Shown here in pieces: positions 9,334 through 43,147 of a stretch of 64,000 bases of DNA. A program made the position numbers and the translations under genes. Source of the stretch: Risungbinella massiliensis (GTDB lineage: Bacteria; Bacillota; Bacilli; Thermoactinomycetales; Thermoactinomycetaceae); assembly GCF_000942395.1 (NCBI RefSeq), contig NZ_LN812103.1, positions 281,000 to 344,999 on the forward strand, read 5' to 3'. The notes beneath the pieces were generated by a model. It made no database searches. It saw nothing but the letters and a program-made list of their open reading frames with translations, and was not told the origin of the DNA. Every line of letters begins with the position of its first letter. Positions within the stretch are counted from its first letter, which is position 1.

Positions 9334-9504
9334 GATAACTCCTCCGTTTCCTTCTATAGTGAACATGTCTATTGTACTGGAAAAAGGTTAATCTAGCGAT
9401 GGAATTCCGCTAAGAACATGTAAAATATGGATGGGATAGTTAAATAGTTGTTACATTAGTATGAATAGTAAGTCGATAACCTTTTTTTCGATAGATTATT
9501 TCTT

Positions 9505-9510
9505 TATAAT
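9505..9510 (+). promoter_or_regulatory. -10 box upstream of leader RNA copy 1
   Basis: TATAAT occurs 11 nt before the conserved GCTACCTACA that opens the leader. The second copy at 10196-10201 is placed alike, so transcripts probably begin at or close to this motif. No good -35 is visible. Confidence 0.5.
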
Positions 9511-9520
9511 GCAGAGTATC

Positions 9521-9639
9521 GCTACCTACAACCAACCTTTACCCAGTGAGATCGATCCATCTTGGGTGATCTGACTGGGTAAAGGTTGGGGAATACTCAA
9601 CCTTCCCAAATAACTTATTATTTGGAAGGGGAATGTATT
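9521..9639 (+). ncRNA. Structured 5' leader, copy 1 (riboswitch-like)
   Basis: After GCTACCTACA, 9532-9547 pairs perfectly over 16 bp with 9574-9589, capped by an inner hairpin (9550-9572). AAGGTTG (9582-9588) can instead pair with CAACCTT (9598-9604). CCTTCC (9601-9606) can pair with GGAAGG (9624-9629), which is the Shine-Dalgarno region of the gene starting at 9640. The last two pairings exclude each other, the layout of a translational switch. I do not recognise it as a known class. Confidence 0.75.
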
Positions 9640-10044
9640 ATGTTAACAATGGATTGGAAGGACTCTTATTACAAAAAAATTACCACTGACACAGTAAAGA
9701 ATATGGAGAGCAAAGAAGTACATCAATATTTTACGACAGTAATCGAGGCATTAGATACAGTTGAAAAATTAGAGCCAATCGCTTATATAGAATTAAAAAA
9801 AGCAAACCCAGCAGTTAATTTTGAACTGAATTTAGATATGATCTACTACAATATGGAACAACTTGTAATACAAGAAGTAGCTAACCTTGCTCAATATAAA
9901 GACCAGCAATTAATTGAAGAAGAAAAACAACCACTAGCCCTCTTAGTAAATGAAGCTGTCCACATGTTAAATAAAAAAGCTGGACTAGACCGAGAGGAAT
10001 CAAGAAAAGTAAAACAATACTTTCAAAACATGATATACCGTTAA
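9640..10044 (+). CDS. Hypothetical acidic protein under leader RNA copy 1
   Basis: 134 aa, mostly helical, no signal peptide, family not recognised. Start at ATG 9640 follows GGAAGGGG; an upstream in-frame TTG lies inside the leader structure and is rejected. It is distantly similar to the product at 10329: VHQYFTTVIEAL against VYQTFTALLLDL, FELNLDMIYYN against LLDEDLFYYEN, and LLVNEAVHMLNKKAG against IAVTNIYFLLTQAAG. The two therefore look like diverged paralogs. Confidence 0.75.
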   Translation: MLTMDWKDSYYKKITTDTVKNMESKEVHQYFTTVIEALDTVEKLEPIAYIELKKANPAVNFELNLDMIYYNMEQLVIQEVANLAQYKDQQLIEEEKQPLALLVNEAVHMLNKKAGLDREESRKVKQYFQNMIYR

Positions 10045-10050
10045 TATCTC

Positions 10051-10095
10051 GTAGGCAGCAGGACGACCTTTTATAAAAGGATCGTTCTTTTATTT
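10051..10095 (+). terminator. Conserved 3' block and terminator, copy 1
   Basis: GTAGGCAGCA is followed by ACGA-CCTTTTATAAAAGG-TCGT and a U-rich tail. The same block follows the second paralog. Confidence 0.8.
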
Positions 10096-10195
10096 TGTCT
10101 TGATTATGAAAGTAGTTTAGAAAGCAGTGGGATTTAGAGTTCAAAAGTTTTGTAAATTTACAGACAGAATACTTCTTTTCTTTGCATCGCTTCTC

Positions 10196-10201
10196 TATAA
10201 T
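10196..10201 (+). promoter_or_regulatory. -10 box upstream of leader RNA copy 2
   Basis: TATAAT lies 9 nt before GCTACCTACA; a weak TTCTTT sits 17 nt further upstream. Confidence 0.5.
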
Positions 10202-10209
10202 AAATATGT

Positions 10210-10328
10210 GCTACCTACACCTAATCTTGTACCCAGTGAGGTCATCCATAAGGGTAATCTGACTGGGTACAAGGTTGGGGCAACTCAACCTTCCCAACAT
10301 TATTAGAATATGGGAAGGAGAATGTACG
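10210..10328 (+). ncRNA. Structured 5' leader, copy 2 (riboswitch-like)
   Basis: Same architecture as the element at 9521. 10221-10237 pairs over 17 bp with 10262-10278, with G-U wobbles where copy 1 has Watson-Crick pairs. AAGGTTG (10271-10277) can pair with CAACCTT (10286-10292), and CCTTCCCA (10289-10296) with TGGGAAGG (10311-10318), covering the ribosome site of the gene at 10329. Both copies are 119 nt from GCTACC to the ATG. Confidence 0.75.
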
Positions 10329-10799
10329 ATGAGCAAAAACAAAGGATTCAATGGATCAAGTAAGGATCAGAACAAAAAAGGACTACAACTTGTCCCAAGA
10401 GAGGTCATTTCCGAAGAAAACGTAGTCCAATTAACAAAAGCGAAATCCGCAATTTCAAATCTAGAGATTACACCAGAAAATACACTTGCTATCGATTTGT
10501 CTAAGGTCTATCAAACATTTACAGCATTGTTGTTAGACCTAAAACAAAAATGCAAGGAAGAAGAAATTCTCCTCGATGAGGATCTCTTCTATTATGAAAA
10601 TCTAGTAGAAAATCTAATCACAGTTGGTCTCTATCGTATAAGAGGAATAGAAGATATAACATTAAAAAACAAAGAAAAAGAAAAATTTACGATTGCAGTT
10701 ACTAATATTTATTTTCTCTTAACCCAAGCAGCTGGTACGATGTCATTTGACGCTAGACAAGAGTCCAAAGATTATCGCCAGCGAATCAATGAGTTTTAG
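10329..10799 (+). CDS. Hypothetical protein under leader RNA copy 2
   Basis: 156 aa with a polar, Lys/Asn-rich N-terminus followed by a helical domain weakly resembling the product at 9640. No recognised family, signal peptide or membrane helix. Start ATG is preceded by GGAAGGAG inside the sequestering hairpin. The stop codon overlaps the conserved 3' GTAGGCAGC motif. Confidence 0.75.
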   Translation: MSKNKGFNGSSKDQNKKGLQLVPREVISEENVVQLTKAKSAISNLEITPENTLAIDLSKVYQTFTALLLDLKQKCKEEEILLDEDLFYYENLVENLITVGLYRIRGIEDITLKNKEKEKFTIAVTNIYFLLTQAAGTMSFDARQESKDYRQRINEF

Positions 10800-10850
10800 T
10801 AGGCAGCAGAACGACCTTTTAATATAAAAGGGTCGTTCTTTTATTTTGTT
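10799..10850 (+). terminator. Conserved 3' block and terminator, copy 2
   Basis: GTAGGCAGCA is followed by AACGACC-TTTTAATATAAAA-GGTCGTT and a U-rich run. It matches the block after the first paralog, with compensating stem differences. Confidence 0.8.
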
Positions 10851-10877
10851 TACATTTGGGATAGGAGGTTTTCAGTT

Positions 10878-10886
10878 ATGAATTGA
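10878..10886 (+). other. Two-codon ORF (ATG AAT TGA) with strong ribosome site
   Basis: GGAGG at 10864-10868, 9 nt spacing, then ATG-AAT-TGA, upstream of and in frame with the response regulator. It may be a regulatory start-stop element or a chance occurrence. Confidence 0.3.
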
Positions 10887-10967
10887 TTCGATACGATATT
10901 TTTAACCGTTTATAGCCTAGGAAAACTGACAGGAACTAAAATTGATATCGAGAAGAGGGATGTTCTA

Positions 10968-16409: not shown

Positions 16410-16457
16410 GAAAAGGAACGAAATGAGTTAGAAAAGGGTCTTTTTTGGAGAAGTGTA

Positions 16458-16625
16458 TTCTAGTATTCTCTAAAAAGCGAAGAGGGAAGCCGGTGTAACT
16501 CCGGCGCGGTCCCGCCACTGTAAATGGGGAGGACGATGTGATAGACCACTGTCCGCTTGGATGGGAAGGTACATCATTCCTATGAACCATGAGCCAGGAG
16601 ACCTGCCTTTTTCTGATCAGCCGTT
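16458..16625 (+). ncRNA. Cobalamin riboswitch
   Basis: Diagnostic blocks are all present: GAAGCCGGTGTAACTCCGGC, GCGGTCCCGCCACTGTAA and the B12 box GCCAGGAGACCTGCC (16593-16607). It precedes a B12 importer operon and should lower expression when adenosylcobalamin is plentiful. Outer limits are approximate. Confidence 0.95.
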
Positions 16626-16757: not shown

Positions 16758-17687
16758 ATGAAAATCCGTTCTCTTTGGATTAGTATGATGATGGTGCTTT
16801 TGGTTGTGATGGGTGTAGCTTGTCAGCCAGCTGCTGAGCAAGATAAAAGTTGGTCCACACCAAGAAAGCCAGATTCGATTAATTATCCTATTTCCGTCGT
16901 CGATCAATCTGGACAAAAACTGACGATAGAGAAAGAACCACAGCGGATTGTTTCGCTGATTCCAAGTAATACGGAGCTTGCCTATGCGCTTCAATTAGAT
17001 CAAAAGATGGTAGGCGTAACTGCTAACGACGATTATCCAGAACAAGTGAAGAGTCTACCTAAAGTAGGAGATCTGAATATTAATATCGAGCAGGTGATGG
17101 CTCAAAAACCGGATCTCGTGCTCGCTTCTCCATTAAATGGGAAAGAGACCATTACCAAACTCCAACAACTGGGAGTTCCCGTATTGGTGCTAAATGCAGA
17201 GAGTTTAAAAGAGGTATATGCATCCATTAATATCTTATCTCAAGTAACCAACCGAACTTATATAGCAGATCAAGTAGTAGCCAATATGCAGGCGAAGTTA
17301 CGAAATGTTGCTGCGTTATTAACTCAAGTTCCACAAGAAAAACGGTTAAAAGTATGGATGGACGATTCATCGTTTTATACACCAGGTTCTGGAACACTCC
17401 AAAATGAATTAATAGAACTTGCAGGCGGAAAAAACGTGGCAGCTTCTCAAAAAGGGTGGGTTCAAGTATCAGCAGAGCAAGTGATTGGTTGGAACCCAGA
17501 TGCGATACTCTTCACATATGGAGATCCTAAATCAGTAGAAAGTCGTCCGGGATGGAATCAGATCAAAGCCGTACAGCAAAAGAAGTATATTACAGTGGAC
17601 GCTAACTTGATCAGTCGGCCTGGACCTCGGGTTATAGATGGAGTGGAACAGATGGCGAAACAACTATATCCGGAGCTCTTCCGATGA
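16758..17687 (+). CDS. btuF: Cobalamin ABC transporter substrate-binding lipoprotein
   Basis: Signal peptide with lipobox GVAC (Cys about residue 22), then a periplasmic-binding-protein fold of the BtuF/FhuD class (RIVSLIPSNTELAYAL, ISRPGPRVIDGVEQMA). Behind the cobalamin riboswitch it is best read as the B12 or cobinamide receptor, anchored on the outer membrane face. GAGGAGG precedes the ATG. It overlaps the permease by 4 nt. Confidence 0.88.
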   Translation: MKIRSLWISMMMVLLVVMGVACQPAAEQDKSWSTPRKPDSINYPISVVDQSGQKLTIEKEPQRIVSLIPSNTELAYALQLDQKMVGVTANDDYPEQVKSLPKVGDLNINIEQVMAQKPDLVLASPLNGKETITKLQQLGVPVLVLNAESLKEVYASINILSQVTNRTYIADQVVANMQAKLRNVAALLTQVPQEKRLKVWMDDSSFYTPGSGTLQNELIELAGGKNVAASQKGWVQVSAEQVIGWNPDAILFTYGDPKSVESRPGWNQIKAVQQKKYITVDANLISRPGPRVIDGVEQMAKQLYPELFR

Positions 17688-18685
17688 GTCGGCAAAAGCT
17701 TTTATTATGGAGCGGAGGAGTTATCCTCTGCTTTTTCTTTGTTTTTTTCCTTTCGATGATGATCGGGAGTGAATTTTACTCAGCTCAACTAGTAGGACAA
17801 GTAATTCTCCATCATCTAGGATTTCCTATATCGGAGCCAAACTTCTTAGCAGATGTGATTCTTTGGAAGTTGCGATTTCCTCGTATTGTCTTTGCTGGGG
17901 TAGTAGGAGCTGCACTGGCTATTGCGGGTACTATGTATCAAGGACTACTACGTAATCCACTCGCTGATCCTTACATTCTTGGTGTTTCCTCGGGTGCTTC
18001 TGTAGGAGCAGTGCTTGCTATTTTGATGGGTTTAGCTACATGGGCTGTTGTCGGAGCCTCTTTTGCAGCTGCTTTAATAGCACTTTTGATGGTGTTACTC
18101 ATTGCTGGAAAACGACTAAATACCCACACGCTAATCCTTTCAGGGGTAGTTGTGCATGCTTTTTTTGGTGCAATTCTTACCTATGCCATTTCGCAATCAG
18201 ATGAGGAATTACCGAGAATTCAGTTTTGGCTAATGGGGAGTTTTACTTTACGAGATTGGAATGATGTGTGGATCCTGACTCCTGTGTTACTTCTTGCTAG
18301 TGGGATCGCTTGGTCCCTTAGTCGTGAGCTCAATCTCTTTTCGCTTGGTGAACGCACTGCAGCTAATGTCGGTGTCTCTGTGAGACGTATTCGTCTCATT
18401 TTGCTTCTGACTGCCTCCCTTTTGACAGCTGTTTCGGTTGCTGTATCGGGTATGATTGGCTTTGTAGGACTCGTAATCCCTCATGTGCTTCGTTTAATCA
18501 TAGGAGCAGATCACAGGAGACTATTACCTTTAGCAGCGATAGCAGGAGCGATTTTTTTGATTGGAGCCGATACGATTGCTCGTTCAGTCCTGTCTCCACG
18601 AGAGTTACCGATTGGAGTGGTAACCGCTTTTCTCGGTGCACCATTTTTTGCCTTTCTTCTACGCCAAAATCGGAATCTGGATTAA
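17684..18685 (+). CDS. btuC: Cobalamin ABC transporter permease (FecCD family)
   Basis: About ten helices with FecCD/BtuC signatures: GAALAIAGTMYQGLLRNPLADP, LGVSSGAS, GMIGFVGLVIPHVLR, ELPIGVVTAFLGAPFF. It forms the membrane channel of the B12 importer with the neighbouring receptor and ATPase. The ATG overlaps the btuF stop. Confidence 0.9.
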   Translation: MSRQKLLLWSGGVILCFFFVFFLSMMIGSEFYSAQLVGQVILHHLGFPISEPNFLADVILWKLRFPRIVFAGVVGAALAIAGTMYQGLLRNPLADPYILGVSSGASVGAVLAILMGLATWAVVGASFAAALIALLMVLLIAGKRLNTHTLILSGVVVHAFFGAILTYAISQSDEELPRIQFWLMGSFTLRDWNDVWILTPVLLLASGIAWSLSRELNLFSLGERTAANVGVSVRRIRLILLLTASLLTAVSVAVSGMIGFVGLVIPHVLRLIIGADHRRLLPLAAIAGAIFLIGADTIARSVLSPRELPIGVVTAFLGAPFFAFLLRQNRNLD

Positions 18686-18700
18686 AAAGGATGAGTCATC

Positions 18701-19471
18701 ATGCTAGAAGCTCATAACGTTACCTATCTTCATTCAACAGGGGCAGGAGTTCGAGAAATAGATTTTGTTGCCAGAGTAGGGCAGACAGTGGGAATTATAG
18801 GCCCTAATGGTTCAGGAAAAAGTACTCTACTTCGCTTATTACATCAAGAATTACGACCACAATCCGGAGAGGTTTTGCTAGATAGCAAGCCGTTGTCACA
18901 ACTTACAAGTAAAGAACGGGCAGTTCAGATTGCAGTCCTCACACAAGAGGGACTAACCGAATTAGGTTTTTCTACAGAGGATCTCGTTAAGATGGGGAGA
19001 TATCCACATCAGAGTCGGTGGTCTTTGTGGGAGGAGAAAGATCAACAAGTGGTAAATCTCTCTATGGAAGCCACCGATACGACCCATTTTCGCGATCGAT
19101 GGCTCCATTCCATGAGTGGGGGAGAGAGACAGCGAGTAGCCATCGCCAAATCCTATGCCCAAGAACCTGCCTATCTCCTATTAGATGAACCTACCACTTA
19201 CCTCGATTTACGTTATCAGTGGCGACTGTTGCGTATGTTACAAGATTGGAAAGAGCGGCATCAAAAAACGCTGATTCTTGTGCTGCACGATATGAATCTA
19301 GCAGCTCTCTTTTGTGATCAAATCTATCTGCTTCAAGCTGGAAGGTTAGTGGCAGTTGGAACCCCTACAGAAGTGCTGACCCAGTCTGTATTAGAACAAG
19401 TCTATGAGACCCGTTTGGAAGTGATTGACCATCCTACGTATCATGTACCACAAATATTATACGGAGAGTAA
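18701..19471 (+). CDS. btuD: Cobalamin ABC transporter ATP-binding protein
   Basis: Walker A GPNGSGKST, Q-loop VLTQEG, signature MSGGERQRVA, Walker B LLLDEPTTYLD, H-loop VLHDMN. FepC/BtuD class energising subunit, 15 nt downstream of the permease. The C-terminal extension (EVLTQSVLEQVYETRLEV) is usual for this class. Confidence 0.9.
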   Translation: MLEAHNVTYLHSTGAGVREIDFVARVGQTVGIIGPNGSGKSTLLRLLHQELRPQSGEVLLDSKPLSQLTSKERAVQIAVLTQEGLTELGFSTEDLVKMGRYPHQSRWSLWEEKDQQVVNLSMEATDTTHFRDRWLHSMSGGERQRVAIAKSYAQEPAYLLLDEPTTYLDLRYQWRLLRMLQDWKERHQKTLILVLHDMNLAALFCDQIYLLQAGRLVAVGTPTEVLTQSVLEQVYETRLEVIDHPTYHVPQILYGE

Positions 19472-20555: not shown

Positions 20556-21077
20556 TTGCAAGAGATCGAACAGATGGTGGTCAAAGCACAGCAAGGTGAT
20601 CAACATGCCTTTGCTGAGTTGATTCGCTCAATACATAAAGTATCATACCGGTTAGCCAAATCCATCTTGGCGAAAGACGAAGATTGTGCGGACGCGATGC
20701 AAGAAGCGATTATTAAAGCATATCAGAATTTAGAGCAGCTACGAGAGCCCAAATATTTTAAGAGTTGGTTCTCTAAAATCTTAATCCATCAATGCTATCG
20801 CCTTCATAATAAGAGGAAAAAAGTAATTTCCTTACAGGATGCTCAGCAGGAGATACCTGTCCAAGAAGCCTATGAGAGAGTAGAGTTCCGAGATTTGGTT
20901 AGTAGATTAGAAGAACCGTTCCGACTGGTTGTGACGCTCTATTATCTCGAAAAATATTCCCTTCAAGAAGTAGCGGACTTACTCGAATTACCATCTGGAA
21001 CGGTCAAGTCACGTCTCTATCGAGCGAGGCAGATGCTACAGAACTTTTTAGAGGCAAAGGAGGTTCACACGATATGA
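20556..21077 (+). CDS. ECF RNA polymerase sigma factor (cassette 1)
   Basis: 173 aa with sigma-2 (DCADAMQEAIIKAYQNLEQL) and sigma-4 (YSLQEVADLLELPSGTVKSRLYRAR) regions separated by a short linker. TTG start after AAAGGGGGGA. It overlaps the DUF4179 gene by 4 nt, the usual sigma/anti-sigma arrangement. About 60% similar by eye to the sigma at 24903. Confidence 0.93.
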   Translation: MQEIEQMVVKAQQGDQHAFAELIRSIHKVSYRLAKSILAKDEDCADAMQEAIIKAYQNLEQLREPKYFKSWFSKILIHQCYRLHNKRKKVISLQDAQQEIPVQEAYERVEFRDLVSRLEEPFRLVVTLYYLEKYSLQEVADLLELPSGTVKSRLYRARQMLQNFLEAKEVHTI

Positions 21078-22522
21078 CATCCATGGAGAAAAAATTAGAT
21101 CAATCCTTTGATGAGTTGGAGCAAGAAGAGATTATGGTACCAGCTGTTTTTCTGCAAAAGATGGAGGAAACATTAGAGAATCTGCCACCAAAGGAAACAG
21201 GCAATGGAGTAGATCTACCTAAGAAAAAGAAGCGCAAATGGTGGGTGTACGCAGCATCGGTAGCATCTTTTCTAGTAGCTGGGTTTGTGACGACATACAG
21301 TATATCGGCGGATTTCAAGGAGTATGTGAAGAATCTATTTCCTGTTAATGATTCGGGTTATCAAAAGGCACAGCAGGAAGGTTTAGTAGAATCTCTCCAA
21401 TTAACTGCCACTGATAAAGGTTATACCATTGAGATCAAAGAGTTATTAGTAGAAGGGCGGCGTGTCTCCGTAGTCTATGAGATCAAAAATGAAAAAGGAG
21501 AGTCTGTCCCATACTCTGCTTTATTTAGCGCGGTGAATACACAATGGCATGCATATATCGTAGATCCTCAAACTAAAAAAGAAAAAGAGATTTGGATCAA
21601 TGATATACAAAATGCTAATAATAGGAAAGGAATTGGAACAGGATTGCTCACACTAGAGTCGCCAACTGAGATACCAGATAAAGCGGTTTTTAAATTGGAA
21701 GTAAATCATTTGTGGAAAGAGGGTAATTATGTAAGTCCGAAAATTGCAGATATTGATGTTCGAGGTACATGGAATTTTTCTATCCCAATTGATTTAACTA
21801 AAGCAAAAGCAAAACAAAAGACTGGAATGGGATCGGAAAGAATACAGTTGTCTACTGGAGAATTTTTTGTGGAGAGTTTAGAATTATTGACTAGTCAAAC
21901 TGTATTAAAAACAACTTTTGTAGGTGAGGGTGGTGAATCACCAGAAACGAGGGAGATGGCGGAATACCAATTACTAGATGATAAAGGGAATCTTTTGTTT
22001 TCTAATGAGAATTGGCATATTTTGCAGAAATATCATAATAATGATTTTCTGAAAAGTCGTGTAGGCGGAATGCATATAGACAAAAAATATGTAGATACAT
22101 ATGAATTTGCCATCTTTCCACCATCTTCTTACTTCACATATCGTCTTCATGCTTTATGGATTAAGCAAATGTTGGATCAGAAAGTCCTCTATCAACCGAA
22201 TACTCATTTCCAAACAGAAGCAGGCAATTTTACTGTTGGATCATTGCAAAAAGGAAAACATGGTACAAAAGAGCTTGTTCTACAAGGAGAGATAAAAGAC
22301 GGCTATGGTGATATGAAGTTTCATTTCTATGACCAGAATGGAAAGTTGACTGGGTATGCAGAGGTTATGCCTATGCAATTGTTGCATGGCAACGGGAAGG
22401 CAGTTATTTCTACCTCCATTCCTAACAACGACACTAAAACTACTACAATCATGTTGGATTCGATTGCGAAACGGATCCCAATCAACAAAGACATTAAGAT
22501 TGTTCCACAACCAGCTAAGTAA
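21074..22522 (+). CDS. DUF4179 anti-sigma factor (cassette 1)
   Basis: Cytoplasmic N-terminal segment (1-55, presumably sigma-binding), one membrane helix (about 57-77) and a large extracellular beta-rich DUF4179 region ending ...KIVPQPAK. It is expected to hold the sigma inactive until an envelope signal arrives. Paralogous along its length to the product at 25421. Confidence 0.85.
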   Translation: MTSMEKKLDQSFDELEQEEIMVPAVFLQKMEETLENLPPKETGNGVDLPKKKKRKWWVYAASVASFLVAGFVTTYSISADFKEYVKNLFPVNDSGYQKAQQEGLVESLQLTATDKGYTIEIKELLVEGRRVSVVYEIKNEKGESVPYSALFSAVNTQWHAYIVDPQTKKEKEIWINDIQNANNRKGIGTGLLTLESPTEIPDKAVFKLEVNHLWKEGNYVSPKIADIDVRGTWNFSIPIDLTKAKAKQKTGMGSERIQLSTGEFFVESLELLTSQTVLKTTFVGEGGESPETREMAEYQLLDDKGNLLFSNENWHILQKYHNNDFLKSRVGGMHIDKKYVDTYEFAIFPPSSYFTYRLHALWIKQMLDQKVLYQPNTHFQTEAGNFTVGSLQKGKHGTKELVLQGEIKDGYGDMKFHFYDQNGKLTGYAEVMPMQLLHGNGKAVISTSIPNNDTKTTTIMLDSIAKRIPINKDIKIVPQPAK

Positions 22523-24844: not shown

Positions 24845-24873
24845 GAACGATTTCCCTTTTGTATGACTCATAG
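24845..24873 (+). promoter_or_regulatory. ECF-type promoter, cassette 3
   Basis: TGAAC, 18 nt, CTCATAG; 29 nt before the sigma start. Confidence 0.65.
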
Positions 24874-24902
24874 TGATAGCAAAAGTAAAAGGGGGTTCTC
24901 CT

Positions 24903-25424
24903 TTGATAGAGGTCGAGCAGCTAGTAACCAAAGCTCAATCAGGCGATCATCACGCTTATGCTGAATTAATTCGCTCCATCCATTCTATATTGTATCGGGT
25001 GTCCAAGACTATCTTACGAAGTGATGAAGATTGTGCCGATGCCATCCAAGAAGCAATCTGGAAAGCATATCAAAACTTAGATCAATTGCAGGAGAGGAAA
25101 TATTTTAAAAGTTGGATCATCAAGATTCTAATCCACCAGTGTTACAAACTGAGTAAGAGACAAAATAATGTGATCTCTTTACAAGAGACCAAACAAGAGA
25201 TACCGGTTCAAGCTCCTTACGATCAGATAGAACTACAAGAAATGATCGATCGATTAGAAGAACCATACCGCTTGGTAATCTCGCTCTATTATCGTGAAAA
25301 GTATACGATGCGTGAAATAGGAGAGATGTTGGAAGTACCGGAGGGTACGATCAAATCTCGGCTCCATAAAGCGAGGCAGATCCTACAGCGTTACTTTGAA
25401 GCAAAGGAGGCGTACTCTCTATGA
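24903..25424 (+). CDS. ECF RNA polymerase sigma factor (cassette 3)
   Basis: 173 aa when started at TTG 24903 (after AAAAGGGGG), equal in length to cassette 1. Sigma-2 (DCADAIQEAIWKAYQNLDQL) and sigma-4 (YTMREIGEMLEVPEGTIKSRLHKAR) are intact. It overlaps the anti-sigma start by 4 nt. Confidence 0.93.
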   Translation: MIEVEQLVTKAQSGDHHAYAELIRSIHSILYRVSKTILRSDEDCADAIQEAIWKAYQNLDQLQERKYFKSWIIKILIHQCYKLSKRQNNVISLQETKQEIPVQAPYDQIELQEMIDRLEEPYRLVISLYYREKYTMREIGEMLEVPEGTIKSRLHKARQILQRYFEAKEAYSL

Positions 25425-26890
25425 AATCAAATCCAAAATTAGAACAAGCATTGGAAAACTGGGGCAACAAAGAAGTGGAAGTACCGGATGTCGTTGTTCA
25501 AAAGATGGAAGATATGTTAGGGAAGATTGCGGTGGAACAAGAGAAGAAAAGGAAGGGAGAAAGGGAGCTGGAAGAAAAAGTAGTCGCAATGGATATGGTG
25601 CCAAAGAAGCGAAAAAGATGGAGGTATGCAGTAGCGGCAGCTTCATTTATTTTAGCTGGACTAGTGACAACATACTATACTTCGGCTGCTTTTCAGGATC
25701 TGGTTCATAAGATACTACCAGTGACATTAGATAAAGGCTTCCAAAAAGCGGATGAAAGCGGTTTGGTTGAGAAGAAACGTTATCAAGTGACGGATAACGG
25801 AGTTACGATCGAAATACAGGAAGTGATGGCAGATCAAGGTATGATCAAAATTGTCTATGATGCTTGGAAAGATAATGGAGAGAAAATTGGGGCAATTTCG
25901 TTAGATGCTGCTTTCCTGAACAGAAAAAATATTCAAGCTCATGATGCAAAAACAAAACGTCTGGTAGTTGTATTCCTGAAAGGCTGGGGGGTAGCTAATG
26001 ATAGTGAGAATAGAGATGGAAAGGTATCTCCTGATCAACGAGGGATCATTACATTCCAAGTGGAGGATACCGATGTTCAAAAAATCATTCTAAAACTACA
26101 TGTTAAGCATATTAGGCCGGAAAACGGAAAACGAGATTTAATAGAGGGTGATTGGAGATTTACCATCCCAATCGATTTCACGAAATCTCAGACATTACAG
26201 AATATAGCAAGCGGAGGAACATATCAAGCACCAGATGGGAATTTTTTGATAGTATCGAAGTTGGATCTGAGACCAAGTCACACTATTTTAACGACTCGCA
26301 GTAAATATGTGTTGAATCCCAATGGATATAACTACCCATTTGAAATTTTAGATGATAAAGGAAATGTAATCTATTCCAATACCGATGATCAGGATAATGA
26401 CAAACAAGTAGATCGACCAGTGTACATGAAAGGAGGTAGTGGAGACGAAGACCCAAAAACTGGTGATATGGTATTTGAAGGGGTTTTTACACCATTTCCA
26501 ACATCTTCTTTCTACACTTTCCGACTAAAAGGTAATTGGTTACCTGTTACGATAGCGAAGACTTTCCCCCTACAAAAAGGAACCAAAATGTCGGTTGAGG
26601 GAGCCGAACTAGTGGTTCAAGATTTGTATATTGGCGCAGATGGACAAAAAACAATAAAGATTAAAGCCAACATTCATGATGGATATGACGCTGCTGTTGT
26701 AAGCATTGGCAATGAGAATGGTAGAATAGGACCATTTGTCATTAATAAAGCAAAATTGGTCAACGGATCTATTGAATTTAACTGGAAGCCAGAATATGAG
26801 ACTCCTCATTCATTACTGCATGTAGATCGAATTAGTAAAGGAAATCTGATAAATTGGGAGACGAAACTCATCCCACAACCAGCAAAATAA
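25421..26890 (+). CDS. DUF4179 anti-sigma factor (cassette 3)
   Basis: Basic cytoplasmic N-terminus, a single membrane helix (about residues 66-86, YAVAAASFILAGLVTTYYTSA) and an extracellular DUF4179 domain. Same layout and C-terminus (NWETKLIPQPAK) as its paralogs, but sensor sequence strongly diverged, suggesting a different signal. Confidence 0.85.
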   Translation: MKSNPKLEQALENWGNKEVEVPDVVVQKMEDMLGKIAVEQEKKRKGERELEEKVVAMDMVPKKRKRWRYAVAAASFILAGLVTTYYTSAAFQDLVHKILPVTLDKGFQKADESGLVEKKRYQVTDNGVTIEIQEVMADQGMIKIVYDAWKDNGEKIGAISLDAAFLNRKNIQAHDAKTKRLVVVFLKGWGVANDSENRDGKVSPDQRGIITFQVEDTDVQKIILKLHVKHIRPENGKRDLIEGDWRFTIPIDFTKSQTLQNIASGGTYQAPDGNFLIVSKLDLRPSHTILTTRSKYVLNPNGYNYPFEILDDKGNVIYSNTDDQDNDKQVDRPVYMKGGSGDEDPKTGDMVFEGVFTPFPTSSFYTFRLKGNWLPVTIAKTFPLQKGTKMSVEGAELVVQDLYIGADGQKTIKIKANIHDGYDAAVVSIGNENGRIGPFVINKAKLVNGSIEFNWKPEYETPHSLLHVDRISKGNLINWETKLIPQPAK

Positions 26891-38933: not shown

Positions 38934-38970
38934 AAGTACCACCAACCTTCATTCTAGGTAGGTGGTACTT
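38934..38970 (+). promoter_or_regulatory. Leader hairpin before the DxDxDG protein
   Basis: AAGTACCACC pairs perfectly with GGTGGTACTT (10 bp) and the loop can extend it (AACCT/AGGT). It ends 8 nt before the GGAG ribosome site and has no U-run, so translational or mRNA-stability control is as likely as termination. Confidence 0.5.
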
Positions 38971-38991
38971 CCCCCATTGGAGTGTATTGAT

Positions 38992-40473
38992 ATGATGAAA
39001 AAAATCATTCTATTTGCACCATTTGTTGTTATTTTAATCTTTGGTCTGCTAATTGCATTTACTAATCTATTTATATTTGAACCTACTTACATGGATCTAC
39101 AAAAAGACGCCCAAGAATTTATCCCAAGAGGAGCAAAAATACTCACTCATGAAGAGGGGAAAAATCTTGCGATGTGGGATATGGATGAGGATCAGATCCA
39201 AGAGGGGATAGTTGTCTATGAGCACCCCAAAACGAAGCAACGAGAGGTACTCATTCTGAAGAAGAAAGTAATAGGGTACGATGTGACAAAATTCCCGATC
39301 TCCGGAAAGGATCCAGTGAAAGAGACTTTTTTTCAGGACGTGACAGGAGATCGTAAACCCGAATTGGTGATGAGAGAACAAAAGCCACAGGGCGAGGAAG
39401 GGACAGAAGAAACGCAACCAGAAATGAACCAGAGTGAACGATTAGTGGTATATCAAGTTCAAACCAATCCAAAAGAGGATAAGTTCCAAGTGGTCACACT
39501 AGGAGAGCTTCAAGGGGAACAAGTTCTTTTAACTGATTTAGATAACAATGGAATCAACGAAGCGATTGTCATCGAACAACAAAAAGATGCTGAATCATAT
39601 GGAGAACGTAATTTTATAGCGAAGTTATACCAATCCAAACAAAATCGCTTGGAACTAGTCCAGACGATGGATCTGGGAATGTCTAACTGGCTTACGGTTT
39701 ACTATTCGCCATTAGATAAAACTGGGAGAAAAGGTTTGATATTAGATAAACAAGTAGGAGTTCACTCACAAACTTTTTCTTTAATAGTAATGAAGGATGG
39801 TCAACTGGTAGATACCGCCCAGGATCAGGGTCATGCAGTGGAAATATACAATAACTATCCAAAATCTCCAATGGATATCAATAAAGATGGTATTTTAGAT
39901 ATTCCATTCGGAAAACCCGATCATCGGTCGTCTATTCTGCCGCTTTCTAACGCAGAGATGCGATATATTTACGAGTGGCAAAACTTCATAGCAGATAATC
40001 GTTTGGTAGAAGTATCGAGATCCATCTCTGGACATGGTTTTGATTGGATTGTTCCAGAGCAGTGGAAAAATATTTCCATGGATGTTGTAGATTTTGATAC
40101 TTCTAGATCACTGGGAACGTCTTTAATTCCTAGCAATCTAGATGAAGGTCCAAGTAGTCCGTTCTTGGTTATCGTTTCTGTGCTGAAAAAAGCAGACTTA
40201 GATAAATATCAGAAAAAAGAAAACAACACTCTTGTGCTAGATGAATTCGAAGATTTTGTATTCGTCGGTCATTATCAAGAAGAGAAAAATATGGATCATT
40301 ATCCGAATACGAAAAAGATCATCATCGACCAAGCGGAATTGAAGAAGAACATTGTATTGTGGGAGGAAGAAGAATTAAAGCAAGCTCTAGGTAGGTTTGA
40401 TGAGATGTTGGAGTTAAACATTCGATATGGGAATGTCGTTGAAGACGAAGAGCAGGTAAGTAACCACCATTAG
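38992..40473 (+). CDS. Membrane-anchored protein with DxDxDG-like loops (paralog A)
   Basis: One N-terminal membrane helix (about 6-26), then an extracellular region with Asp-rich loops (DMDEDQIQEG, DVTGDRKPEL, DLDNNGINEA, DINKDGILDI) resembling FG-GAP/VCBS or calcium-binding repeats. Parallels the product at 41690 throughout (AQEFIPRGAKIL against AKEFIPSGVRML; SGHGFDWIVPEQWKN against TGLGFDWVIPSSWEN). ATG 38992 has GGAG 9 nt upstream. Function unknown. Confidence 0.75.
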   Translation: MMKKIILFAPFVVILIFGLLIAFTNLFIFEPTYMDLQKDAQEFIPRGAKILTHEEGKNLAMWDMDEDQIQEGIVVYEHPKTKQREVLILKKKVIGYDVTKFPISGKDPVKETFFQDVTGDRKPELVMREQKPQGEEGTEETQPEMNQSERLVVYQVQTNPKEDKFQVVTLGELQGEQVLLTDLDNNGINEAIVIEQQKDAESYGERNFIAKLYQSKQNRLELVQTMDLGMSNWLTVYYSPLDKTGRKGLILDKQVGVHSQTFSLIVMKDGQLVDTAQDQGHAVEIYNNYPKSPMDINKDGILDIPFGKPDHRSSILPLSNAEMRYIYEWQNFIADNRLVEVSRSISGHGFDWIVPEQWKNISMDVVDFDTSRSLGTSLIPSNLDEGPSSPFLVIVSVLKKADLDKYQKKENNTLVLDEFEDFVFVGHYQEEKNMDHYPNTKKIIIDQAELKKNIVLWEEEELKQALGRFDEMLELNIRYGNVVEDEEQVSNHH

Positions 40474-40583: not shown

Positions 40584-41225
40584 CTATAATCTTTCACCAT
40601 GTTTTTCGCAATTTTGGTAAAAGGTTATGTAGGTTTGATCAGCTTCTTCTTCATTTACAATACAGCCACGTATCACTTCTTTTAAACTGTTGATATCACC
40701 TGAACTCGATGCTACCGAAGCTTGGAATACTTGTTTGCTAGGAACTCGTGACCAATCTAGCTTATAACCTGCTTGTAACGCTAGACAGCGTATGAACTCT
40801 CTTTGTGATCGCCCATTCCCTTCACGAAATGGATGTAGCATATTGATCTCGGCCATATAAAAAGCAGCCCGTTTTGAAAAGTCCTCTAAAGGTAGACCTT
40901 GTAAGCATTTTTCACGGTGTAATGACCCAAAAATATCATGGGCTACATCTTGCAAATAGATAGTTCTAGCAAACCAAGTATTTTGTTTTGCGATATCCAC
41001 TTCGCGCAATGCACCAGCCCACTCATATATATCTTGAAAGATAAATTGATGTATCTGTTGAAGGTGTTCTAAATTGAATTTACCGTAGATAGGAGATTTT
41101 TGTAGTTGGGCTAAGCGCTTTAATGTATAGAGTGCCTCCATTGTGAACAACTCTGTGTACTCTCTCATATGAAATTCATTGATCAAAACGTCACTGTTTG
41201 GATATGAGTAGGATTTAGGAGCCAT
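40584..41225 (-). CDS. Fic/DOC family toxin-like protein
   Basis: Fic domain with the complete active-site motif HPFREGNGRSQR, compatible with AMP transfer from ATP onto a target hydroxyl. It carries no N-terminal inhibitory helix of its own; the helix is supplied by the gene immediately upstream. Start ATG overlaps the antitoxin stop (TAATG), with AAAGGAG inside the antitoxin gene. Confidence 0.92.
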   Translation of the reverse strand: MAPKSYSYPNSDVLINEFHMREYTELFTMEALYTLKRLAQLQKSPIYGKFNLEHLQQIHQFIFQDIYEWAGALREVDIAKQNTWFARTIYLQDVAHDIFGSLHREKCLQGLPLEDFSKRAAFYMAEINMLHPFREGNGRSQREFIRCLALQAGYKLDWSRVPSKQVFQASVASSSGDINSLKEVIRGCIVNEEEADQTYITFYQNCEKHGERL

Positions 41226-41431: not shown

Positions 41432-41689
41432 TGCTTCCTCTCCTTCGGAAAACAAATATAGCATATCGGGTAAGTCGAAAAAATGTAGAAAGGAATGTTT
41501 GAGTGGGATTATAATATAGAAGTTCTTATGCTCCAATGAAAAGATCTATTTACAAGAATCTTATTGTCAGAAGGAGATCTAGGTTTTATTCAATAGAGAT
41601 AAAGATATTTATATTATTTTTAAAATCTATCAGTACTTACAAAAAAATAGGAACAGTTTGATAAAAACAACAAGAGAGTGGTTTTCAAT

Positions 41690-43147
41690 ATGAAGAAAAA
41701 ATTTGTGCTATTAGCACCATTTATAGTGATTGCAATATGTGCCGTGTTATTTGTATATCGGAATATTTTTGTAATAGAACCGGCATTTGCTGAGTTACAA
41801 GAGGATGCGAAGGAGTTTATCCCAAGTGGAGTAAGAATGTTAGCTCAAGACCCAGAACAAAATCTATCTATGTGGGATTTAGACGGGGATCAGAAAAAAG
41901 AGGGAATTGCGGTTTACGAGTATCCAGCTACAAAACAAAAAGAGATCCTTGTAATGAAAAAGAAGGTAATAGGATATGAGGTTACCAAGACGCCTGTAAA
42001 TGTACAGGACGAGGTCAAAGAAGTAAAGGTACAAGATTTATCTGGAGATAAAATTCCGGAAATTACGCTTATTCGGGAATCGAGACAAGAAGGAATGCAG
42101 CCACCTTATTTTAGAGATAAAGTGAGTCAAAATGCATTTATCCTTACCATGAATCCAAAATCGCCTACACTAGGCTTTCAACAGATTGCATACGTAAAAG
42201 GAACTACCATATTCCAAACAGATCTAGATCATAACCAGATAGAAGAATTAGTAGTGCTGGAGATGACGAGTTATCCAGAATATGAAGATGGGGATTATCA
42301 ACCTGGTAAAGCAAAAGCAAAGTTACTTCAATTGAAGGACAATCAGTTGACTACGATTCAAGAGATAGACTTGGGAGAGCTTAATGCCATCTATTCTCAC
42401 TTAGGAAAGATCGATAGTAGTGGGCGCAAAGGTATTGTGGTTGCAAAACCATATGGAAACGATCAGGAAGTAGATGATAGAGGTGCATATAATGTTTTGG
42501 TTATGCAAGACGGGAAGCTAATGGACCTTTTGGAAACTACTTCGTTTAGAATAGACAATATTTCATTTAAAGATATGTTGGACATAAATAAAGACGATAT
42601 TTTAGATATTCCAGTTTTTACATATGAAGGTACAGGACCTAAGTTTGAATTTACTACTCCAATTGTTCACTGGTATAACTTTACTGCAGATAATCAAAGG
42701 ATTAAAGTAGCCGAGTCTGTAACGGGACTAGGGTTCGACTGGGTTATTCCAAGCAGTTGGGAAAACTTAGCGCTTAAGCAACATAGAGACGCAACTTCAA
42801 CATATTTTGGTTCATGTTTGACTATTAATCCAGAAAAAATAGAAATGATGTGTCTTTATATAACTAAGAAACAAGATATATCCTATTTTAGTGAGTATGA
42901 GTATCATGTTCTGGATACATACCAAGATTACATTGTTATAGGATATATGAATCAATTAGATGCTAGCATAGCGAACAATTATCCACAAACAAACAAGGTG
43001 TTAAAAGAACAACTTAATTTAAAAAACCAAATGTTGTTATGGGGTGAATCGGAGCGAAAGATTGCAATGAAAACATTTGAAGAAATATTAAAACACAGTG
43101 CGATTATGAACCCTCATGGCGAAGGTCTCTACGAGGATGACCTATAA
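41690..43147 (+). CDS. Membrane-anchored protein with DxDxDG-like loops (paralog B)
   Basis: Single N-terminal helix then extracellular Asp-rich loops (DLDGDQKKEG, DLSGDKIPEI, DLDHNQIEEL, DINKDDILDI). Homologous to the product at 38992 in the same order and spacing. ATG at 41690 follows a weak GAGAGTGG. Function unknown. Confidence 0.75.
   Translation: MKKKFVLLAPFIVIAICAVLFVYRNIFVIEPAFAELQEDAKEFIPSGVRMLAQDPEQNLSMWDLDGDQKKEGIAVYEYPATKQKEILVMKKKVIGYEVTKTPVNVQDEVKEVKVQDLSGDKIPEITLIRESRQEGMQPPYFRDKVSQNAFILTMNPKSPTLGFQQIAYVKGTTIFQTDLDHNQIEELVVLEMTSYPEYEDGDYQPGKAKAKLLQLKDNQLTTIQEIDLGELNAIYSHLGKIDSSGRKGIVVAKPYGNDQEVDDRGAYNVLVMQDGKLMDLLETTSFRIDNISFKDMLDINKDDILDIPVFTYEGTGPKFEFTTPIVHWYNFTADNQRIKVAESVTGLGFDWVIPSSWENLALKQHRDATSTYFGSCLTINPEKIEMMCLYITKKQDISYFSEYEYHVLDTYQDYIVIGYMNQLDASIANNYPQTNKVLKEQLNLKNQMLLWGESERKIAMKTFEEILKHSAIMNPHGEGLYEDDL

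What the first reader, a model, noticed from the sequence alone, without database searches (positions are those of the whole stretch)
9505..10850. Duplicated structured-RNA leader module controlling two diverged paralogs
Seen: two 119-nt leaders (9521, 10210) share the opening GCTACCTACA, a 16-17 bp hairpin whose paired changes keep pairing (CC/GG against CT/GG wobble, TTT/AAA against TTGT/ACAA), a capped inner hairpin, and a Shine-Dalgarno hairpin. The downstream proteins resemble each other only faintly, so the RNA is better conserved than the protein. Inference: an undescribed cis-regulatory RNA class, possibly a riboswitch or protein-binding autoregulatory leader. It does not match any leader class I know.
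Basis: partly seen in the sequence, partly recalled or inferred. Interest (0 to 1): 0.85.

Follow-up and report, generated by a model that had tools for sequence, protein, structure and literature searches.

The report
Paired self-closing mRNAs for orphan proteins
Two neighbouring bacterial genes share an elaborate folded RNA start and a matching RNA end that are predicted to zip together into a closed, translation-blocked message, an arrangement known from a few toxin mRNAs but here in front of unknown, non-toxin-like proteins found in no other genome searched.

Summary
Two ~119-nt leaders (9521-9639, 10210-10328) are 87% identical. Each has a 16-18 bp hairpin capped by an inner hairpin, then a hairpin sequestering the Shine-Dalgarno (SD) sequence. 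Seven substitutions and four indels separate the hairpins, yet pairing is kept (simulated chance at most 0.0007). The downstream proteins are remote paralogues.

The 3' UTR plus terminator is conserved even better (45/47). The 'unpaired' opening GCTACCTAC is complementary (8/9) to GTAGGCAGC just before the terminator, in both copies. Full-transcript folding closes the message 5' to 3' with probability near 1 (chance of such a complement ~0.002). The big hairpin's 3' arm can also pair with the anti-SD strand, freeing the SD if the 5' arm is removed.

Best reading: a closed, translation-blocked mRNA, opened by processing or binding. It works like hok/AapA mRNAs but is not a type I toxin-antitoxin. 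This is inferred, not shown.

The 'new RNA class' claim fails its own test so far: no homologue of RNA or proteins in the genome samples searched (61-399 genomes each), nor in viral, phage and plasmid sets. No Rfam match. A riboswitch has no support.

The parts
9505..9510 (+). -10 box TATAAT of copy 1 (no clear -35)
   Evidence: Sequence; same element before copy 2; the sigma-70 consensus scan does not report it, since no good -35 lies at the right distance
9521..9529 (+). Copy 1: 5' strand of the end-closing helix, GCTACCTAC
   Evidence: Full-transcript fold, pairing probability ~1 at 8 of 9 positions
9532..9589 (+). Copy 1: main hairpin, 16 bp outer helix plus inner hairpin
9582..9591 (+). 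Copy 1: AAGGTTGGGG, 3' arm that can pair with the 5' arm or with CTCAACCTT
9595..9609 (+). Copy 1: ACTCAACCTTCCCAA, anti-Shine-Dalgarno / alternative-pairing strand, identical in both copies
9624..9631 (+). Copy 1: Shine-Dalgarno GGAAGGGG, sequestered
9640..10044 (+). Copy 1: coding sequence, 134 aa, helical protein without known family
10051..10059 (+). Copy 1: 3' strand of the end-closing helix, GTAGGCAGC
10060..10096 (+). Copy 1: intrinsic terminator hairpin and T-rich tail
10196..10201 (+). -10 box TATAAT of copy 2
10210..10218 (+). Copy 2: 5' strand of the end-closing helix, GCTACCTAC
10220..10279 (+). Copy 2: main hairpin, 18 bp outer helix plus inner hairpin
10271..10280 (+). Copy 2: AAGGTTGGGG, dual-pairing 3' arm
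10283..10297 (+). Copy 2: ACTCAACCTTCCCAA, anti-Shine-Dalgarno / alternative-pairing strand
10313..10320 (+). Copy 2: Shine-Dalgarno GGAAGGAG, sequestered
10329..10799 (+). Copy 2: coding sequence, 156 aa, helical protein, remote paralogue of copy 1
10799..10807 (+). Copy 2: 3' strand of the end-closing helix, GTAGGCAGC (starts at the last base of the stop codon)
10808..10847 (+). Copy 2: intrinsic terminator hairpin and T-rich tail

Best explanation
Each copy is a short, self-contained transcription unit whose mRNA folds shut. The 5' end (GCUACCUAC) pairs with GUAGGCAGC directly before the terminator, so the closing helix can stack between the terminator hairpin and the large 5' hairpin, and both mRNA ends are buried. 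The Shine-Dalgarno is held in a second hairpin. The full-length mRNA would therefore be long-lived and poorly translated. It becomes translatable when the 5' arm of the large hairpin is removed or captured, for instance by double-strand (RNase III) cleavage of the long stem or by a trans-acting RNA or protein. The freed 3' arm AAGGUUGGGG then pairs with CUCAACCUU and loosens the anti-Shine-Dalgarno strand. Shown by sequence and computation: the conserved elements, pairing-preserving differences, predicted closure, and predicted alternative pairing with raised Shine-Dalgarno accessibility. Inferred: mRNA stability, translational silence, and the trigger. The products are remote helical paralogues of unknown function, which have diverged much further than their RNA ends.
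For: Strong local folds. Structure kept through 7 substitutions and 4 indels, p at most 0.0007. Conservation is confined to the transcript ends: leader 87%, 3' UTR/terminator 45/47, CDS DNA at shuffle level. The 3' conserved block starts at the closing-helix G and the 5' block at GCTACC. Full-transcript folds pair 5' and 3' ends with probability ~1 in both copies; chance of an 8/9 complement in a 30-nt 3' UTR is 0.0022, and 0.0005-0.0045 by duplex energy. Blocking or removing the 5' arm shifts the fold to the alternative hairpin and raises Shine-Dalgarno unpaired probability from near 0 to roughly 0.3-0.8 at its central bases. The 3' arm and anti-SD strand are identical in both copies while the 5' arm has drifted through G-U wobbles. 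Precedents: 5'-3' closed, silent mRNAs opened by processing (PMC6733600) and 5'-3' UTR pairing feeding RNase III (PMC3868564).
Against: Only two sequences, copies of each other, so there is no cross-species covariation. The closing helix does not vary between copies, so its pairing is untested by covariation, and it was found after looking. The alternative hairpin is far weaker than the main hairpin, so it needs an active trigger that has not been identified. Freed Shine-Dalgarno accessibility is only partial, least in copy 1. No transcription start or expression data; the -35 is poor.
Confidence: 0.45

Rival explanations
1. A plain stabilising and translation-damping leader: the 5' hairpin protects the mRNA and the SD hairpin lowers translation. 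The 5'-3' complementarity and the alternative pairing are incidental.
For: The stable hairpin near the 5' end and the SD hairpin are the best-supported parts. The 8/9 complement could be a post-hoc find.
Against: Does not explain the perfect conservation of the otherwise unpaired GCTACCTACA, nor the 3' UTR conserved at 45/47, nor the conserved ACTCAA upstream of the anti-SD core.
Confidence: 0.25
2. A protein-binding autoregulatory leader: one or both encoded proteins, or another regulator, bind the hairpin and shift the SD between its two pairings.
For: Two paralogous proteins share one leader; the capped long hairpin and the dual-pairing strand would suit a protein switch.
Against: The proteins have no recognisable RNA-binding family or fold and have diverged to 22-26% identity while the RNA stayed 87% identical, which fits poorly with each protein reading its own leader.
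Confidence: 0.13
3. The ends were homogenised by gene conversion or a recent cassette exchange between neighbours, and the leader is conserved because it is young rather than functional.
For: Conservation stops abruptly at both ends of the coding sequence, and the terminator, which rarely needs an exact sequence, is 45/47 identical.
Against: The differences that did accumulate in the hairpin preserve pairing far beyond chance, which conversion alone does not explain. It can add to, rather than replace, selection.
Confidence: 0.1
4. A metabolite riboswitch of a new class.
For: Structured leader with SD sequestration before a gene, no Rfam match.
Against: Nearly all of the structure is a long unbroken helix with no conserved multi-loop pocket; the loop of the inner hairpin is not conserved; no homologues before related genes; downstream proteins are not enzymes or transporters of a known kind.
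Confidence: 0.03

Closest known systems
hok / AapA type I toxin mRNAs with a 5'-3' long-distance interaction (PMC6733600)
   Same: Predicted pairing of mRNA 5' and 3' ends, SD held by an anti-SD sequence, alternative folds exposed after removal of one strand.
   Different: Proteins are 134 and 156 aa and helical, not small hydrophobic toxins. No antisense RNA is evident. The closing helix here lies just before the terminator. The SD is locked by a local hairpin rather than by the 3' end.
icaR mRNA of Staphylococcus aureus (PMC3868564)
   Same: 5' UTR and 3' UTR of one Gram-positive mRNA base-pair with each other; double-stranded RNase III substrate.
   Different: In icaR the 3' UTR pairs with the SD itself. 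Here it pairs with the extreme 5' end, and the RNase III candidate is a local hairpin. This 3' UTR is short.
Phage lambda cIII leader (from general knowledge, not looked up here)
   Same: Two mutually exclusive folds of a leader, one hiding and one exposing the SD, with RNase III as the switch.
   Different: No sequence relation was tested; here the default hairpin is far more stable than the alternative.

Membership tests
Type I toxin-antitoxin mRNA (hok/AapA-like) | Small (under ~60 aa) hydrophobic toxin | tested here: not met
   134 and 156 aa, charged proteins predicted helical
Type I toxin-antitoxin mRNA (hok/AapA-like) | Antisense RNA antitoxin over or beside the gene | tested here: inconclusive
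   One promoter-like site on the minus strand of copy 1 (9646-9617), none reported for copy 2; fewer promoter-like sites than in shuffles
Type I toxin-antitoxin mRNA (hok/AapA-like) | 5'-3' long-distance closure of the full-length mRNA | tested here: met
   Predicted with probability ~1 in both copies; prediction only
Type I toxin-antitoxin mRNA (hok/AapA-like) | Sequestered Shine-Dalgarno in the full-length mRNA | tested here: met
   Central SD bases unpaired with probability near 0 in the leader-plus-start-of-CDS fold; prediction only
icaR-type 5'-3' UTR regulation | 3' UTR motif pairs with the Shine-Dalgarno | tested here: not met
   3' UTR pairs with the 5' end; SD pairs locally
Any Rfam family | Match at or above the gathering score | tested here: not met
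   No Rfam 15 family matches 9400-10900 at gathering score; relaxed search gives only weak, implausible hits
Riboswitch class | Conserved aptamer found before related genes in several species | tested here: not met
   No homologues in the samples searched; other species of this genus were not available
Riboswitch class | Ligand-induced conformational change | not testable with these tools
   Needs in-line probing or SHAPE

The most novel reading that the evidence does not exclude
A lineage-specific mRNA architecture, not previously described as far as I could find, in which the transcript's two ends and its terminator form one coaxial stack, and a single dual-pairing strand couples end processing to Shine-Dalgarno release. 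It is used to hold ready, stable, silent messages for rapidly diverging non-toxin proteins: hok-like control outside toxin-antitoxin systems.
Probability: 0.25. Interest if true: 0.72.

Novelty: new variant of a known kind. Interest (0 to 1): 0.5.

Why it matters
5'-3' closed, translation-blocked mRNAs are known from a handful of toxin genes, and 5'-3' UTR pairing from icaR. A duplicated example before orphan proteins that do not look like toxins would suggest this control is more general in Gram-positive bacteria, and would show RNA ends held constant while the protein between them changes almost beyond recognition. It is also a compact test case, because two natural variants of the same switch sit side by side.

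Tried and rejected
Rfam at gathering and relaxed thresholds: only weak, implausible hits. Protein homologues in Pfam, NCBIfam, PHROGs, PADLOC, PDB sequences and viral contigs (both proteins), plasmids (protein 1 only) and phages (protein 2 only): none credible (weak hits in L045 and L058 contain stop codons). DNA search of plasmids and phages: none. Fold search: no match with E at or below 0.001; the VIA-align best Z of 9.2 is in the range common for helical bundles and the top rows are designed proteins. Covariance-model hits elsewhere (L017 23.7 bits, L060, L061) occur at or below the rate expected by chance over ~400 genomes. L017 shares only ACTCAACCTTCC and an SD hairpin. Viral pattern hits to GCTACCTACA lack the hairpin. 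Synteny: the region upstream of DUF2797 is not conserved in family members. An antisense promoter was considered; it is not supported beyond chance. The single genome-contig scan went to the DUF2797 neighbour and did not help, so the new RNA and proteins were never scanned against that collection. The terminal complementarity as inverted repeats of a mobile element was considered: only two copies exist in the genome, and the -10 box and terminator outside the repeats are part of the repeated unit, so it is not favoured.

Full report
Observation. They align at 100/115 identical positions, against a shuffle maximum of 73%. Each folds far better than shuffled sequence: z -8.0 and -6.8, 0 of 200 shuffles as low. 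The main hairpin is 16 bp (9532-9589) in copy 1 and 18 bp (10220-10279) in copy 2, capped by an inner hairpin. A further hairpin holds the Shine-Dalgarno (SD).

Structure-preserving change. Between copies the hairpins differ by 7 substitutions, 2 insertions and 2 deletions. The insertions are a matched G and C, one in each arm. In the outer helix two C-to-U changes stay paired as G-U and an A-G mismatch becomes C-G. Simulating the same number of changes on copy 1 gives a hairpin as stable as copy 2 in 0.03-0.07% of trials. Two sequences cannot give a phylogenetic covariation test, but the fold has clearly been kept.

Dividing the two cassettes by region, the leader is 87% identical and the 3' UTR with terminator 45/47, while the coding DNA between them is at shuffle level. 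The proteins are nonetheless probably related: single-comparison E 0.004, 1/2000 shuffles, and similar helix order in the two AlphaFold models, which are of low to moderate confidence (mean pLDDT 76.6 and 66.2) and were folded on a shared two-row alignment, so they are not independent. The conserved blocks begin at GCTACC at the 5' end and at GTAGGCAGC in the 3' UTR. These two strings are complementary at 8 of 9 positions.

Closure. Folding each whole transcript pairs the 5' end (9521-9529; 10210-10218) with 10051-10059 or 10799-10807 at probability ~1, flush against the terminator hairpin, with 1-2 nt to the main hairpin on the other side. A random 30-nt 3' UTR holds such a complement with probability 0.0022. 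By duplex energy, 0.05-0.45% of shuffled or window 10-mers do as well. This was found after looking, and the helix is invariant between copies, so it is suggestive, not proven.

A possible switch. The 3' arm of the main hairpin, AAGGUUGGGG, and the strand ACUCAACCUUCCCAA are identical in both copies while the 5' arm has drifted. If the 5' arm is blocked or cut off, the 3' arm pairs with CUCAACCUU. The SD's central bases then rise from near 0 to roughly 0.3-0.8 unpaired. At equilibrium the main hairpin wins by a wide margin, so opening would need cleavage (the long duplex is a plausible RNase III substrate) or capture of the 5' arm. The trigger is inference.

Distribution. The own genome has only these two copies (for the 3' end). 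No relative has the leader or the proteins by direct search. The covariance model R1 finds nothing above the chance rate in samples of 61, 399, 398 and 395 genomes, partly overlapping. A protein profile search of 399 genomes finds nothing credible, nor do the viral, phage and plasmid collections. No other genome of the same genus appeared among the relatives searched, so the element may be genus-specific. The genes are AT-rich (32-34% G+C against 40% for the window) but show a coding signal in frame, as expected for lineage-specific orphans. The surrounding genes are mostly chromosomal housekeeping genes, with a two-component/ABC module just downstream.

Comparison. It works most like hok and AapA mRNAs, which are closed by 5'-3' pairing and opened by 3' processing (PMC6733600), and like icaR, whose 3' UTR pairs with its 5' UTR (PMC3868564). 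It is not a member of the first, because the proteins are not small hydrophobic toxins and no antisense RNA is evident. It differs from icaR because the SD is not the 3' UTR's target. No Rfam family matches.

Verdict. The regulatory mechanism is a reasoned inference at about 45%. The claim of an RNA class is unproven because no homologue was found. Scored as a new variant of a known kind.

Noticed in passing
16419-16624 (+): Cobalamin riboswitch (132 bits) before a gene set at 16758-19471 that reads like a B12-type binding protein, permease and ATPase.
   Followed up: no
20556-22522 and 24873-26890 (+): Two similar gene pairs, each a sigma-factor-like protein followed by a predicted membrane protein, apparently a duplicated sigma / anti-sigma module.
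   Followed up: no
9586-9639 and 10275-10328 (+): In both leaders the reading frame is open upstream of the ATG to a TTG inside the hairpin's 3' arm (MGNTQPSQ.., MGQLNLPN..). No suitably spaced ribosome-binding site, so probably not translated.
   Followed up: partly
L017:1501-1620 (-): A distant genome of the same class has ACTCAACCTTCC pairing with a Shine-Dalgarno GCGGAAGGGG before a short protein; likely chance, but a similar SD lock.
   Followed up: partly
38962-40473 and 41678-43147 (+): Two paralogous predicted secreted or membrane-anchored proteins flank a Fic-like gene (40584-41225, minus strand).
   Followed up: no
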